NCBI RefSeq assembly: GCF_017983445.1
Contig: NZ_JAGOBJ010000003.1
Coordinates: forward strand, 326,103-390,102
From: Halomonas sp.
GTDB lineage: Bacteria; Pseudomonadota; Gammaproteobacteria; Pseudomonadales; Halomonadaceae
DNA: 64,000 nucleotides
Direction: 5' to 3'
The notes under the pieces were generated by a model. It saw only the letters and a list, made by a program, of their open reading frames with translations, had not been told where the DNA came from and did not search any database. The position numbers were made by a program, and so were the translations under genes. Below are positions 44,072-58,706 of the stretch, piece after piece. Numbering within the stretch: position 1 is the first letter of the stretch; each line of letters begins with the position of its first letter.

Positions 44072-45142
44072 TTATCCAAGCACCGAATTGCGGTCGGCGT
44101 TGGCGCGCTCTTGGGCGCGTTCACGGGCATTCTCAAAGGCTTCAAGGAAATTCTCGCCGTCTTCGCCAAAATGATCTAAGTACCATGCGCGAATGGGATC
44201 GGCCAATGCACGGAATTCCTTCATTTCTTCTTCGGTGGGTGTGTAAATCTCGCCACCTGCATCTTTCCATTTACGGTAAGCCGCTAGCTCTTTGCGGGGC
44301 TGGATGCCGAACTGTACCGTTGCCATCATGGCGGCACCGTCAGCAACAACACGCTGTTGCTCGGGTGTCAGAGACTGAAACTTCTGATTTCCCATCAGCC
44401 ACATGGACGCCATATACGCATGGTTATCCATGGTCATATATTTGATGACTTCCTGAAAATTCATGTTGGTGATGTCTGAAATGGAGTTGAGCGTGCCGTC
44501 GACGACGCCTGTCTGCAGGCCGGTATATACTTCAAGCCAGGGCAGGGGAGTGGGGGAGGCCCCCATTTCGCGAACCATGAGCTGCTGTATTTCTGACTCA
44601 ATGGTACGAAAGCGGAGACCTTCCGCGTCGCTGGGCGTGCGAATTTCACGCTCGCCATTAGTGATGTTGCGCCAGCCACCCGTTTGAGTCATCGACATCA
44701 AGCGGATTCCGCCATTGGTGGACCTAAGAATCTCGTCTCTTAGAAACCCCGTGAACTGCGGGTCTGTCAGCATATTCATGGCCGCCCGGTCATCAGGGAA
44801 TGCGTAAGGGATATCTAATCCCTGGATTGGCGGATAAATGGAGGCAACACCGCCGGCCGTCGCAGTATACAAATCCACAATTCCTGCCTGCATGGCTTCA
44901 AAGCATTCGTTGGCAGAACCACACAGCTGCGCGCCTGCAAAGATATTAACCGTAACGTCTCCGCCGGTGCGGCTCTCAACGTAGTTCTTGAACACTAATG
45001 CAGCGTCATACTCTTGATCTTCTTCGTTTGCGAGAAAAACGAGGTTGAGTTCTGCAGCCTGGGCGATGCTCGACATGCAGAGTGCGCCGCCTAATAATAG
45101 TGAAGCGAGCGCTTTCTTGGTGTGCTTTATAGGCATTGTCAT
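44072..45142 (-). CDS. TRAP solute receptor of the SQ cluster
   Basis: Periplasmic DctP-family receptor, about 356 residues. ATG 45142 has AGGAG immediately upstream (a second ATG two codons later is possible). The signal peptide ends near SIAQA-AELN. The core shows FAGAQLCGSANECFEAMQAG, GWRNITNGEREI and the ligand-contact GLRFRTIESEIQ. It is clearly different from the two receptors at 22-26 kb. Its operon is divergent from the SQ dehydratase operon and carries the LacI-type operator at 47101, so sulfoquinovose or an SQ glycoside is the inferred substrate. Confidence 0.88.
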   Translation of the reverse strand: MTMPIKHTKKALASLLLGGALCMSSIAQAAELNLVFLANEEDQEYDAALVFKNYVESRTGGDVTVNIFAGAQLCGSANECFEAMQAGIVDLYTATAGGVASIYPPIQGLDIPYAFPDDRAAMNMLTDPQFTGFLRDEILRSTNGGIRLMSMTQTGGWRNITNGEREIRTPSDAEGLRFRTIESEIQQLMVREMGASPTPLPWLEVYTGLQTGVVDGTLNSISDITNMNFQEVIKYMTMDNHAYMASMWLMGNQKFQSLTPEQQRVVADGAAMMATVQFGIQPRKELAAYRKWKDAGGEIYTPTEEEMKEFRALADPIRAWYLDHFGEDGENFLEAFENARERAQERANADRNSVLG

Positions 45143-45168
45143 TGTTCTCCTAAAATATATATTGCGGG

Positions 45169-46464
45169 TCAAGCGACGTATCCGAACATTCTGGGCAGCG
45201 CCAGAATGAGATCGGGGATGTAAACCAAAGCAAAAAGGATGGCGATTTCAACGAAAAAGAGCGGCAGCATCTCCCAGGCAATCTTTTCGATACGCTCCTT
45301 ACTGATACTGCTGACCACAAAGAGCACCAAGCCCATGGGAGGTGTTATCAGTCCCATGATCAGCGTGATGCTCATTACGACAGCAAAATGAATAGGGTCA
45401 ACGCCTACACCCACCATTACCGGCGCAAGGATAGGCCCCAGGATCAAGATGGCGGGACCTGCATCCATGATGGTGCCTACCGCCAACAGGAAGGCCACTA
45501 CCAAAAAGAATAGAATTCTAGGATCATCAGTGACTGAGAGAATGAATGCACTTACCAGTTGGGGGGTGCCTTTAAGGCTAACGAGAGATGCAAAGGCCAC
45601 AGCAGCGCCGACTAAAAGCAGAATGACCGCAGAGTTGATAGCCGCTTTACCAAACAGGCCGGGCAGATCCTTGAAGGTAATCTCCCGTGTTACGAACAGG
45701 CCCAGAATCAGCGCATAAAAAGCAGCAACGGCAGCGCCCTCGGTGGGCGTAAAAATACCACCCACAATACCGCCGATAAGAATCAAGGGAGTCAGAAGTG
45801 GCATAAACGCAGTGACAAAGGCCTGCCACTTTTCTTTCCAGCTGGCTTTGGGCAGCGGTTCTGGAAACTCCTTAAACCGAGCCATAATCGCAATCGTGAT
45901 CATTAACCCTATGCCGATGAGTATGCCTGGCACTACACCACCTGCAAACATGCCAGCTACCGACACGTTCATGATAAACGCATAAAGAATGAAAATGCCG
46001 CTTGGTGGAATAATACTGGCTATGACCGCGGAAGCCGCTGTAATGGCCGCTGAAAAGCGGTTGGTATAACCCGATTGGCGCATTGCGGGAATCATTACTG
46101 AACCCATTGCTGAAGCGTCTGCCACGGCAGAACCGGAGCCGCCCGCCAACATCAGTGAGGACGCTACCGACACCTGTCCAAGGCCAGCCTTACGATGGCC
46201 AATCAGCGTTTCGGCAAAACGCACGATACGCTTCGTCACACCCCCCGCCGTCATTAGCTCACCGGCCAGAATGAAAAACGGCAGTGCCATGAGCGGGAAA
46301 CTATCGATCCCTGCAAAAAGCCGCTGAAATAATAGGTTAAGAAAGACCGGCTTACCTTCCATTAATAAACTAATGCCTGGCGCAAAAAGCATTAGAAATA
46401 CGATGGGCATACCGGCAATTAACAGAAAGAGGAAGATCCATAAATAAGCGAAAGTCATGGTCAT
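45169..46464 (-). CDS. TRAP large permease of the SQ cluster
   Basis: DctM-family subunit, 431 residues, with about 12 helices. It carries FPLMALPFFILAGELMTAGG, SGSAVADASAMGSVMIP, SAVIASIIPPSGIFILYA and LIMGLITPPMGLVLFV. It overlaps dctQ upstream by four bases and lies 26 bases before the receptor gene, giving the order Q-M-P on the minus strand. Confidence 0.93.
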   Translation of the reverse strand: MTMTFAYLWIFLFLLIAGMPIVFLMLFAPGISLLMEGKPVFLNLLFQRLFAGIDSFPLMALPFFILAGELMTAGGVTKRIVRFAETLIGHRKAGLGQVSVASSLMLAGGSGSAVADASAMGSVMIPAMRQSGYTNRFSAAITAASAVIASIIPPSGIFILYAFIMNVSVAGMFAGGVVPGILIGIGLMITIAIMARFKEFPEPLPKASWKEKWQAFVTAFMPLLTPLILIGGIVGGIFTPTEGAAVAAFYALILGLFVTREITFKDLPGLFGKAAINSAVILLLVGAAVAFASLVSLKGTPQLVSAFILSVTDDPRILFFLVVAFLLAVGTIMDAGPAILILGPILAPVMVGVGVDPIHFAVVMSITLIMGLITPPMGLVLFVVSSISKERIEKIAWEMLPLFFVEIAILFALVYIPDLILALPRMFGYVA

Positions 46465-57164: not shown

Positions 57165-57197
57165 ATATAAAAAACCCCATGGAGTGACTCCATGGGG
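57165..57197 (-). terminator. Terminator after the porin gene
   Basis: CCCCATGGAGT and ACTCCATGGGG are perfect reverse complements with almost no spacer. On the minus strand the stem is followed by a T-run, so it ends porin transcription before the lacI promoter. Confidence 0.85.
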
Positions 57198-57248
57198 AAT
57201 GCAGACATTAAATACAGTAAGTAGTAATGCTTACGCTTAATGTAGACG

Positions 57249-58706
57249 TTAAAAAAAGGTTTCCGCCTGTACACCAAAGCTCCACTGGCCACCGGTAAAG
57301 TTATCGCTACCAAAGGCGTCCTGAGTGTCATAACCGTTTAGTTCGCTGCTCCAGTCGGTATAAGAGGCAAACGTACGAATTTCAGGCCGCTTCCAGAATC
57401 CGCCCACATCCAGCTTGAACGTGGGTGCAATCGTGAACTTGGCAAAATCCCCGCTCACGGCGTTACGGTTCCGGTACCCCTCAGGATTAAGGTCCATGTA
57501 CTGGTAGCTTAACTCGTATTGCATCTCAAAATTACGGGTAAGCTCATTGGCAAGACGCGCATTCGCGGTTATCCAGCGGTAGCTGTCTCCTTGTGAAAAG
57601 CGATCCTCGCTCGTTTCAGCCAGGATTGCCGGGGCAATGCGCCAACTCGGAGAGAGATACGTGGTGCCATAGACAGCAAGCCGGGCCGTCTTGGCGTCAT
57701 CCAGTAAATCTCCGTTGGAACCCAGGCGCTTAACCTCAGCACCGAGCCCTTGACCGTAGAGCAACGCTGCCTTGAAATTGCCGTCTGCCAGCCCAAAAAA
57801 GGAGTCACCGTGATAGGCCAGCATGCTATGAACGCCGTTATCCGCTGCGCTATCACTACTTTCCGTTAGCCGCTCATCATTATCAGCGGCAGAAATAGCG
57901 TTAACCATCAACTGCCAATTACCAACATAGTTATTGGTCGTCAGTATCAGACTATCGGTATCGCCGCTACCCGGATTACGCGGATCGCCGACTGGGAAGT
58001 CATTAAAGCTTCGGCCATAGAGCGAGAAATTGGTACGCCAGTCAGGTGTAGGTTGTACGTCATAAATACCGGCGCCTGTGCCTGCTAGAAAGACCACATC
58101 GCTATCCAGCCAGTGAATATCGAAAGTGTCGCGGTCGATACGTTTGCCCGCCCAAATGGCCGCATCGGCAAACGCGCCGGTAAAACTGGGCAGATTATCC
58201 AACTCAATATAGACTTGGCGAACGTTGAGTTCCGACTCGTTGGACGTCCAGTCATTGCTGGTGGTTACGGAATCGGCAATAGCGACCCGGAAAAGTGACC
58301 TGGCGCCATTATCGAGCTGCTTTCTTAAATTAAACATCAGGTTGACGTAGGTATCGGGCTCGTTACCTAAGCGGCCAACCGCACCGCCAAGGGGGCCAAC
58401 GGGTGTTATATAAGGCCCGCCTGAAATACTTTTAGCGTCTTCCCCAATCAGCAGCCCTGACCGGGCGTAACCGTTGAGTGATAGCCCTTCACCATTGGAA
58501 GCCTTTCTTTCCAAAGTCTCAAGTCGCTCGTTTACTGTGGTGGTGTTGGGCTCCACGGGTTGGTTGTCTCGTCTTTCAGCGGCCGCCAAACGTGCTTCAA
58601 GAGCCGCAATGCGTGCTTCAATATCCGCATTATCTGCATAGGCAAATGTACTTATATTGGCGAGCGCCACCGCAGCCACTAACGGAAAAAGTGCAACAGG
58701 CTTCAT
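57249..58706 (-). CDS. LamB-like outer-membrane sugar porin
   Basis: Outer-membrane porin of 485 residues. ATG 58706 follows AAAGGA; the signal peptide is [24 protein letters not shown]. Residues 25-80 of the frame form a coiled coil ([16 protein letters not shown]), as in ScrY/LamB-type porins with an N-terminal periplasmic extension. The barrel contains the LamB-like [22 protein letters not shown] and ends in a terminal Phe (VQAETFF), the outer-membrane assembly signal. Two perfect LacI-type operators precede it, so it is the probable outer-membrane entry route for SQ or sulfoquinovosyl glycerol. Confidence 0.87.

What the first reader, a model, noticed from the sequence alone, without database searches (positions are those of the whole stretch)
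44072..58706. Complete sulfo-Entner-Doudoroff cluster for sulfoquinovose, in an unusual host and layout
The genes cover every step: porin, TRAP importer, GH31 sulfoquinovosidase, SDR (SQ dehydrogenase), SMP-30 lactonase, IlvD/Edd dehydratase, HpcH/HpaI aldolase, aldehyde dehydrogenase, TauE/SafE exporter, LacI regulator. The enzyme set matches the sulfo-ED route described in Pseudomonas putida SQ1. The combination with a TRAP importer and LamB-like porin in a halophile-type genome is, to my knowledge, not a described arrangement. It predicts growth on algal or cyanobacterial sulfolipid head groups, with sulfolactate as the waste product.
Basis: partly seen in the sequence, partly recalled or inferred. 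Interest (0 to 1): 0.88.

Follow-up and report, generated by a model that had tools for sequence, protein, structure and literature searches.

The report
Sulfoquinovose operon with TRAP importer
A salt-loving bacterium carries a known type of gene set for eating the sulfur-containing sugar of plant and algal membranes, but pairs it with an importer type (TRAP) whose relatives sit beside several different pathways for the same sugar, so it is probably a dedicated uptake system for it.

Summary
Window 44072-58824 encodes a complete sulfo-Entner-Doudoroff (sulfo-ED) set for sulfoquinovose (SQ). The SDR's best solved match is P. putida SQ dehydrogenase, with all ten published site residues kept. 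The GH31 enzyme groups with the YihQ/sulfoquinovosidase entries. The host is a Vreelandella-group Halomonadaceae.

The layout is not peculiar to this genome: 10 of 275 Halomonadaceae genomes carry this GH31, and all 10 carry the same twelve genes. The enzyme order matches rhizobial sulfo-ED operons, which use ABC importers.

The new part is transport. Seeding only with the TRAP binding protein, 31 of 34 regions fetched carry an SQ-pathway or SQase marker, spread over sulfo-ED, SQ monooxygenase and dioxygenase-type clusters; control regions gave 0 of 24. SQ or its glycosides are what these routes share, so the TRAP system is most likely an SQ importer.

A 16-bp palindrome sits twice in the divergent control region and twice before the porin in all ten clusters, a likely LacI operator. 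No SuyB or Xsc candidate was found, so sulfolactate export is the likely end point. All functions are inferred, and whether TRAP uptake of SQ is already in print could not be fully checked.

The parts
44072..45136 (-). DctP: TRAP solute-binding protein, proposed SQ/SQ-glycoside binding protein (ORF can be extended to 45172 by a TTG)
   Evidence: Pfam PF03480, 210.5 bits; SQ-linked group in the tree; neighbourhood survey
45169..46464 (-). DctM: TRAP large permease
   Evidence: Pfam PF06808, 359.9 bits
46461..47012 (-). DctQ: TRAP small permease
   Evidence: Pfam PF04290, 81 bits
47117..47145 (-). sigma-70-like promoter of the TRAP operon (TTGACA-17-TAACAT)
   Evidence: 2 promoter-like sites in the stretch, 0.8 expected
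47100..47115 (.). operator-like palindrome (2 mismatches to WTCGTAGCGCTACGAW), just downstream of the TRAP -10
47282..47311 (+). sigma-70-like promoter of the enzyme operon (TTGACA-18-TATATT)
47312..47327 (.). operator-like palindrome (1 mismatch) abutting the -10 of the enzyme operon
47393..49126 (+). 6-deoxy-6-sulfogluconate dehydratase (IlvD/Edd, L-arabinonate dehydratase-like); proposed GTG start
   Evidence: PF00920 343.9 bits; NCBIfam NF009559 942.8 bits; PDB 8ej0, 9evv
49139..49942 (+). KDSG aldolase (HpcH/HpaI)
   Evidence: PF03328 145.7 bits
49988..50875 (+). sulfogluconolactone lactonase (SMP-30/SGL)
   Evidence: PF08450 283.6 bits
50918..52366 (+). sulfolactaldehyde dehydrogenase (GabD/SlaB-like aldehyde dehydrogenase)
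   Evidence: PF00171 573.3 bits; SSADH-family best PDB matches; positions of RlGabD W162-N163-F164, R171, E261, R289, C295 kept with an offset of 5
52376..53143 (+). SQ dehydrogenase (SDR)
   Evidence: best PDB match P. putida SQDH 9gwu, E 6.2e-95; ten residues kept
53185..55251 (+). GH31 sulfoquinovosidase
   Evidence: best PDB matches 5ohy, 5ohs, 8r56, 6pnr, 5aed, 5aee at 766-940 bits
55251..56006 (+). TauE/SafE exporter, proposed sulfolactate export
   Evidence: PF01925 75.7 bits
56016..57053 (-). LacI/GntR-type repressor, proposed regulator of the cluster
   Evidence: PF00356/PF13377; best NCBIfam NF052440 330.9 bits, below its cut-off of 400
57139..57154 (.). weak operator-like palindrome upstream of lacI (2 mismatches; a counterpart in only 3 of the 9 related clusters)
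57175..57197 (-). terminator-like hairpin after the porin gene
   Evidence: 4 such sites in the stretch, 3.2 expected in shuffles
57249..58706 (-). LamB-family outer-membrane porin (ORF extends to 58751)
   Evidence: PF02264 290.9 bits
58755..58770 (.). operator-like palindrome upstream of the porin (exact)
58809..58824 (.). second operator-like palindrome upstream of the porin (exact match to the pattern)

Best explanation
This is an inducible sulfoquinovose regulon. SQ or sulfoquinovosyl glycerol (SQGro) crosses the outer membrane through the LamB-type porin, is captured by DctP and imported by the DctQM permease (inferred to be Na+-driven, as known TRAP systems are). GH31 frees SQ from its glycoside; the SDR oxidises SQ to sulfogluconolactone; the SMP-30 protein opens it to sulfogluconate; the IlvD/Edd enzyme dehydrates it to KDSG; the HpcH aldolase splits KDSG into pyruvate and sulfolactaldehyde; the aldehyde dehydrogenase makes sulfolactate, which TauE exports. 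The LacI protein represses the TRAP operon, the enzyme operon and the porin by sitting on copies of WTCGTAGCGCTACGAW, beside the -10-like boxes of the two divergent operons; self-repression of lacI is only weakly suggested. Shown by sequence: gene identities, key residues, promoter- and operator-like sites, conservation of the cluster, co-location of DctP relatives with SQ genes. Inferred: every substrate, the direction of transport, that LacI binds the palindrome, its inducer, the end product.
For: SDR: best PDB hit is P. putida SQDH; D45, D99, R101, N119, S147, R152, R154, Y160, K164, Q198, named for PpSQDH in PMC12133307 (section read), are identical, including the sulfonate-pocket residues R152/R154; the next-best hit, 4lvu, named only as an SDR oxidoreductase, has L and N there (alignment). 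GH31: 766-940 bits to six PDB sequences, four of them named yihQ (5aed also Sulfoquinovosidase) and two only GH31/alpha-glucosidase, against 156 for the next; sulfonate-site residues line up with the best match, 5ohy/5ohs (alignment; recalled as the Agrobacterium SQase, motif recalled). Same twelve genes in 10 of 10 GH31-positive Halomonadaceae of 275 searched. TRAP: a DctP-seeded scan of genome contigs gave 13 loci, 12 next to sulfo-ED genes and 1 (L020) next to a TauD-family dioxygenase; in two further genome samples 31 of 34 regions around DctP relatives hold an SQ marker: ED 5, SMO 9, TauD-type 13, GH31 alone 1, GH188-like alone 3. Controls: 0 of 20 regions around other DctP genes of this genome and 0 of 4 plasmid DctP loci under 36% identity. 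Operator: 5 sites in the window against 0.06 expected; 5 of the genome's 6 sites lie in the cluster; two sites in the divergent region and two before the porin in 10 of 10 clusters.
Against: No activity, growth or binding data. The SQ mutarotase-like gene found in 7 of the 10 Halomonadaceae clusters is missing here, and the only candidate found in the genome is weak (34% identity, E 5.5e-8). The aldehyde dehydrogenase scores as a succinate-semialdehyde dehydrogenase, and the arginine pair proposed for sulfonate binding is also in SSADH (PMC10599462 passages), so that step is not discriminated by sequence. The dehydratase passes NCBI's cut-off for L-arabinonate dehydratase, though so named enzymes also sit in the rhizobial sulfo-ED operons. 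Three of 34 DctP regions and 2 of 12 plasmid relatives of at least 38% identity have no SQ marker. This genome is rich in TRAP systems (25 DctP matches), so a TRAP neighbour alone means little. The operator pattern was derived from these clusters, and its total count in the genome (6) hardly exceeds the reversed-pattern control (5); only its clustering is striking. The promoter-like sites are near the chance level (2 against 0.8).
Confidence: 0.85

Rival explanations
1. An oxidative pathway for a neutral pentose or hexose (L-arabinose, D-xylose or similar), with the GH31 as an ordinary alpha-glucosidase.
For: Dehydratase passes the NCBIfam L-arabinonate dehydratase cut-off; the SDR's nearest NCBIfam model is D-xylose 1-dehydrogenase (331 bits, below its cut-off of 400).
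Against: SDR best PDB match is SQDH with all ten site residues; GH31 matches the YihQ group at 766-940 bits and others at 156 or less; TauE exporter and SLADH-type dehydrogenase in every one of ten clusters.
Confidence: 0.04
2. The sugar is sulfofucose (6-deoxy-6-sulfogalactose), the C4 epimer.
For: Same enzyme families for three of four core steps in Paracoccus wurundjeri (PMC12421959 sections read).
Against: That pathway's dehydratase is PF13378/PF02746, not PF00920; its clusters were reported with ABC importers and no sulfofucosidase candidate, and SQases of E. coli and A. tumefaciens were reported inactive on a sulfofucoside.
Confidence: 0.04
3. The TRAP system imports something other than SQ, for example a sugar acid or a C3 sulfonate such as sulfolactate, and is only a neighbour.
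For: TRAP systems mostly carry carboxylates (general knowledge); a TRAP system is a putative sulfolactate importer, and others likely taurine importers, in Taurinivorans muris (PMC10507020 passages); 3 of 34 relatives lack an SQ marker; 25 DctP matches in this genome; no binding data.
Against: The SQ-linked DctPs group together (27 rows, 96/91 support, apart from 24 other DctPs of this genome) and are found with sulfo-ED, SMO and TauD-type clusters; by known chemistry the last two routes do not make C3 sulfonates. No other importer was found in or beside the cluster.
Confidence: 0.15
4. Sulfolactate is not waste: the organism mineralises it, or sulfolactaldehyde is reduced to DHPS.
For: Sulfofucose degrader P. 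wurundjeri couples to SuyAB (PMC12421959); marine Vibrio sulfo-ED ends in DHPS (PMC13372026).
Against: The three PF04295 proteins of the genome are 509-599 aa galactarate/altronate-dehydratase types, not split SuyAB (SuyB size recalled); no Xsc over cut-off, best 307.3 of 676.4 bits; an ALDH is in all ten clusters. CuyA, ComC/SlcC and SLA reductases elsewhere in the genome were not searched.
Confidence: 0.12

Closest known systems
Sulfo-ED pathway of Pseudomonas putida SQ1
   Same: Same reaction set by family: SDR, SMP-30 lactonase, PF00920 dehydratase, PF03328 aldolase, ALDH; SDR is a close SQDH homologue.
   Different: TRAP importer, LamB porin and LacI beside it here; P. putida's mutarotase gene (PpSQ1_00415, PMC5902678 passages) has no counterpart in this cluster. 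P. putida's own transporter genes were not examined.
Rhizobial sulfo-ED operons (Rhizobium, Shinella, Microvirga plasmids)
   Same: Enzyme order dehydratase-aldolase-lactonase-SDR-GH31-TauE; LacI regulator beside the Shinella and Rhizobium operons (the two Shinella records carry the same proteins).
   Different: They carry ABC sugar-transporter genes (in Microvirga the binding-protein gene is outside the stretch shown); in Shinella and Rhizobium the ALDH comes last; no LamB porin or TRAP in the stretches shown.
Sulfo-SMO clusters on plasmids of Rhodobacterales (Ruegeria, Roseivivax, Roseicitreum, Salipiger, Paracoccus) and one Rhizobium
   Same: Related TRAP system, DctP 40.6-44.4% identical.
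   Different: SQ monooxygenase chemistry (LLM enzyme close to PDB 7olf/7oh2, tested for one), GntR regulator, GH188-like gene (tested for one).
Vibrio splendidus JLJ25 sulfo-ED (PMC13372026)
   Same: Marine gammaproteobacterium with sulfo-ED shown by growth, proteomics and knockout (section read).
   Different: Ends in DHPS through a reductase; the word 'transporter' has 0 occurrences in that text.

Membership tests
Sulfo-ED pathway | SQ dehydrogenase (SDR) with sulfonate-binding residues | tested here: met
   9gwu best match; ten of ten named residues
Sulfo-ED pathway | SGL lactonase PF08450, SG dehydratase PF00920, KDSG aldolase PF03328 in one cluster | tested here: met
Sulfo-ED pathway | SLA dehydrogenase | tested here: inconclusive
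   GabD/SlaB-type ALDH with the proposed Arg pair, which SSADH also has
Sulfo-ED pathway | SQ mutarotase (usual accessory gene) | tested here: not met
   absent from the cluster; weak hit elsewhere only; present in 7 of 10 related clusters
Sulfo-ED pathway | growth on SQ with sulfolactate released | not testable with these tools
   needs culture
GH31 sulfoquinovosidase subfamily | sulfonate-binding R/W/Y with K/E pair and catalytic Asp pair (motif recalled) | tested here: met
   R317, W320, Y525 (ORF numbering) and the ILGLK, LWCEDW, WMADFGEYLP, AGDQ stretches align with 5ohy/5ohs
TRAP transporter | DctP, DctQ and DctM together | tested here: met
SQ-specific importer | binding of SQ or SQGro by DctP | not testable with these tools
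   inferred from co-location and tree only; the structure model failed (mean pLDDT 39.9)
SQ ABC importer (as in rhizobial operons) | ABC ATPase, permeases and binding protein in the cluster | tested here: not met
   none among the cluster and flanking proteins scanned
Sulfofucolytic ED pathway | dehydratase of PF13378/PF02746 | tested here: not met
   PF00920 instead
LacI-regulated regulon | shared palindromic site at the promoters of the target genes | tested here: met
   divergent region and porin in 10 of 10 clusters, lacI upstream in 4 of 10
LacI-regulated regulon | binding of the LacI protein to the site | not testable with these tools
   needs a gel shift or similar

The most novel reading that the evidence does not exclude
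The DctP group of this cluster defines a family of SQ (or SQ-glycoside) TRAP importers used by marine and halophilic Pseudomonadota across at least three SQ pathways (sulfo-ED, monooxygenase, dioxygenase) and with both SQase families, replacing the ABC importer of soil bacteria; the importer, not the pathway, is then the constant marker of SQ use in saline waters.
Probability: 0.68. Interest if true: 0.6.

Novelty: new variant of a known kind. Interest (0 to 1): 0.5.

Why it matters
SQ is made on a gigaton scale a year (PMC13372026 abstract) and uptake is the entry step for its breakdown. The held papers speak of ABC systems for SQ import. A TRAP family that follows SQ across unrelated pathways would give a pathway-independent gene marker for SQ uptake in marine genomes, and binding proteins that can be tested directly. 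It also places sulfo-ED in cultured halophiles, where a simple operator-based regulon can be studied genetically.

Tried and rejected
Structure of DctP: AlphaFold2 on ten rows gave mean pLDDT 39.9, so no fold search was run and nothing is drawn from it. PDB sequence search with DctP returned only distant DctPs (best 124.5 bits), no ligand hint. Neutral-sugar and sulfofucose readings were rejected as above. 'Unusual layout' was rejected: 10 of 10.

Surveys with little to show: class-level GH31 search, besides this genome only G586 of 369; its region L056 has GH31 but no sulfo-ED or TRAP hit. Phylum-level GH31 search, 16 of 398 including own; of the 15 others (L041-L055) one (L042) has a full sulfo-ED set and one (L045) SDR and lactonase hits, both without TRAP hits; L046 has a DctP hit and L047 DctP, DctQ and DctM hits; the remaining 11 showed no full sulfo-ED set and no TRAP hit in the 14-20 kb fetched.

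Rows dropped and dependence: L001-L012 and L026-L031 were left out of the table. G867 (L047) and the first G988 copy (L046) were not in the 34 regions because they had been found with the GH31 query. The 20 own-genome control regions cover 21 of the 24 other DctP genes, and three of them overlap each other; they are a weak control, since one genome needs only one SQ cluster, and one (L137) has a dehydratase hit of 392 bits without the SDR. The four plasmid loci are the better but small control. 'TauD-type' loci are called SQ dioxygenase-like from neighbours (aldo/keto reductase, GH188-like gene, exporter in many); identity with SqoD was not tested. The GH188-like call (over 200 bits) is loose in three ED loci (35% identity). 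Markers were chosen after seeing the plasmid loci; the thresholds were written before the 34 regions were scored.

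
Full report
WHERE. The window lies in a 3.9 Mb, 16-contig genome. Its DctP is closest to loci of Vreelandella songnenensis and V. zhanjiangensis (91% and 90%), and genomes with contigs of the same lengths are listed as its genus: a halophilic Halomonadaceae. The cluster holds no tRNA and has 0.505-0.617 G+C.

OBSERVATION. Two divergent operons leave a common control region: TRAP P-M-Q on the minus strand, and dehydratase, aldolase, lactonase, ALDH, SDR, GH31, TauE on the plus strand; lacI and a LamB-family porin follow on the minus strand.

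ENZYMES. The SDR's best match among PDB chains is P. putida SQ dehydrogenase (9gwu, 320.6 bits; next 234.6). The PpSQDH paper (PMC12133307, structure section and discussion read) names Asp45, Asp99, Arg101, Asn119, Ser147, Arg152, Arg154, Tyr160, Lys164 and Gln198 for cofactor, sugar, sulfonate and catalysis; all ten are identical here at the same numbers. The GH31 protein matches six PDB sequences at 766-940 bits, four named yihQ and two named only GH31 or alpha-glucosidase, and the next at 156. The sulfonate-site Arg, Trp and Tyr and the Lys/Glu pair (motif and its Agrobacterium type recalled) line up with the best match. The dehydratase has Cys97, Cys165 and Cys238, a spacing I recall as that of [2Fe-2S] L-arabinonate dehydratases. 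The ALDH keeps the residues proposed for RlGabD (PMC10599462 passages), but the Arg pair is shared with SSADH, so this step rests on context.

END PRODUCT. Family PF04295, which should catch SuyB (recalled), gives three proteins in the genome, with ORFs of 509, 599 and 522 aa; one passes the galactarate dehydratase cut-off and two hit the same model below it. SuyB is recalled as about 390 aa with a separate SuyA. No Xsc passes its cut-off. So sulfolactate is probably exported by TauE. CuyA and ComC/SlcC were not searched.

CONSERVATION. Of 275 Halomonadaceae genomes searched, 10 have a GH31 at E<=1e-100. I fetched the nine others: all ten have the same twelve genes in the same arrangement. Seven have an aldose-1-epimerase gene (one tested: PF01263, 143.6 bits) between aldolase and lactonase, the family expected of SQ mutarotase (PMC5902678 passages). 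It is missing in the window and in L032 and L033; elsewhere in the genome only a weak candidate was found. This looks like a lineage-specific loss.

COMPARISON WITH SOIL OPERONS. A protein search of plasmids with the SDR gave 31 records, 20 of them listed; I opened five. In Microvirga, two Shinella records (same proteins) and Rhizobium the enzyme order is dehydratase-aldolase-lactonase-SDR-GH31-TauE, with ABC sugar-transporter genes. A Burkholderia plasmid also has an ABC system, in another order and without GH31 in the stretch shown. So the catabolic core here is the known one; what differs is uptake and the regulator-porin flank.

THE TRAP RELATIVES. A scan of genome contigs seeded only by DctP, which reaches close relatives, returned 13 loci: 12 have SDR, lactonase, aldolase and dehydratase divergent from the TRAP genes (eight gammaproteobacteria with ALDH and GH31, four Rhodobacteraceae MAG stretches on which neither was found). 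The thirteenth, L020 (Saccharospirillum MAG), has a TauD-family dioxygenase and a YeiH-type sulfate exporter instead. A plasmid search with DctP gave 16 records, all inspected (with tblastn): of 12 with 38% identity or more, nine sit in a cassette of LLM oxidoreductase, aldo/keto reductase, flavin reductase, GntR and a Gfo/Idh gene, one beside GntR and the LLM gene only, two without SQ markers; of four below 36%, none. The Ruegeria TM1040 LLM enzyme's best PDB matches are 7olf and 7oh2 at 683 and 661 bits, recalled as SQ monooxygenase SmoC, and its Gfo/Idh protein's are 8zn9, 8qc2 and 8qc3, recalled as NAD-dependent SQases of GH188.

LARGER TEST. DctP at E<=1e-65 hit 22 of 390 genomes of the order and 17 of 398 of the phylum, own genome and two others in both. 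I fetched 34 regions, leaving out the own genome and two loci already held. By fixed bit-score thresholds: sulfo-ED 5, SMO 9, TauD-type 13 (11 of them with a GH188-like gene), GH31 alone 1, GH188-like alone 3, nothing 3. Of the three blanks, two are contigs of 8 and 6 kb and one is a second copy in a genome whose first copy lies beside a GH31 (L046). The same thresholds on 20 regions around other DctP genes of this genome and on the four distant plasmid loci gave 0 of 24 (limits of this control are told under Tried and rejected). A tree of 55 DctPs puts the 27 rows of the SQ set (25 with an SQ marker, 2 without) on one side of a branch with 96/91 support, apart from 24 other DctPs of this genome and four unlinked plasmid ones. 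Sulfo-ED makes C3 sulfonates and the two oxygenase routes release glucose and sulfite (PMC12890257 passages), so SQ or its glycosides are what they share, and the simplest reading is that this group imports SQ or SQGro. That is inference: no binding was tested, and the structure model failed.

REGULATION. A palindrome scan of the intergenic regions picked out WTCGTAGCGCTACGAW. Counted with up to two mismatches, all ten clusters have two sites in the divergent region and two before the porin; a site before lacI, always with two mismatches, is seen in only four (window, L032-L034). In the window five sites stand against 0.06 expected; the whole genome has six, five of them in this cluster, including all three with at most one mismatch. 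The reversed control pattern gives five sites in the genome, so the clustering, not the number, counts. Sigma-70-like boxes (TTGACA-18-TATATT at 47282 and TTGACA-17-TAACAT on the other strand; 2 found, 0.8 expected) end right beside the palindromes, as expected for repression.

LITERATURE. Read: section 3.2 and passages of a 2026 review (PMC12890257), two results sections and passages of PMC13372026, sections of PMC12421959 (the discussion's first part), passages of PMC9594981, PMC10755693, PMC4940961, PMC5902678, PMC10599462, PMC13219744 and PMC10507020. 'TRAP' has zero occurrences in the main text of PMC13372026, PMC12890257, PMC9594981 and PMC10755693, and in PMC12421959 and PMC12133307 it occurs only in other senses. 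PMC10507020 names TRAP systems for taurine and putatively sulfolactate, not SQ. Library searches for sulfoquinovose with TRAP, TRAP-transporter, DctP or Halomonas terms listed no paper on the point, judged from titles, abstract starts and the passages above (one search showed 20 of 191). Four papers looked up by identifier were not held, so I do not claim that it is unpublished.

VERDICT. A sound observation: a known pathway in a conserved halophile version, whose importer points to a cross-pathway SQ TRAP family.

Noticed in passing
window 53185-53244: The start of the GH31 gene is four 15-bp tandem repeats, each beginning with ATG in frame, giving four candidate start codons.
   Followed up: no
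window 26426-30600: Stretch of about 40% G+C from a tRNA-Arg gene (26426-26502) on, in a window otherwise of 48-62%: looks like a small genomic island; its ORFs were not classified.
   Followed up: no
L046 802-12013: In genome G988 a GH31 and a DctP of the SQ group sit beside a glycyl radical enzyme scoring 1595 bits for NCBIfam HpfG ((2S)-3-sulfopropanediol dehydratase), a glycerol dehydrogenase and a glycerone kinase-like gene: perhaps an anaerobic route using both the glycerol and the sulfonate of SQGro.
   Followed up: partly
L047 7718-16578: GH31, TRAP genes, an aldo/keto reductase and a TauD-family dioxygenase together: a candidate SQ dioxygenase cluster with a TRAP importer.
   Followed up: partly
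L034-L040, e.g. L038 9627-10508: SQ mutarotase-like gene between aldolase and lactonase in 7 of 10 Halomonadaceae clusters, missing in the window, L032 and L033.
   Followed up: partly
L022-L025: Four Rhodobacteraceae MAG stretches carry the same divergent TRAP/sulfo-ED arrangement, with no ALDH or GH31 hit on them, suggesting transfer between classes.
   Followed up: partly
L099 3924-6963 and L064 4990-7960: Two plasmid DctPs of the group (Pacificitalea, Photobacterium) have no SQ marker in the stretch fetched.
   Followed up: partly
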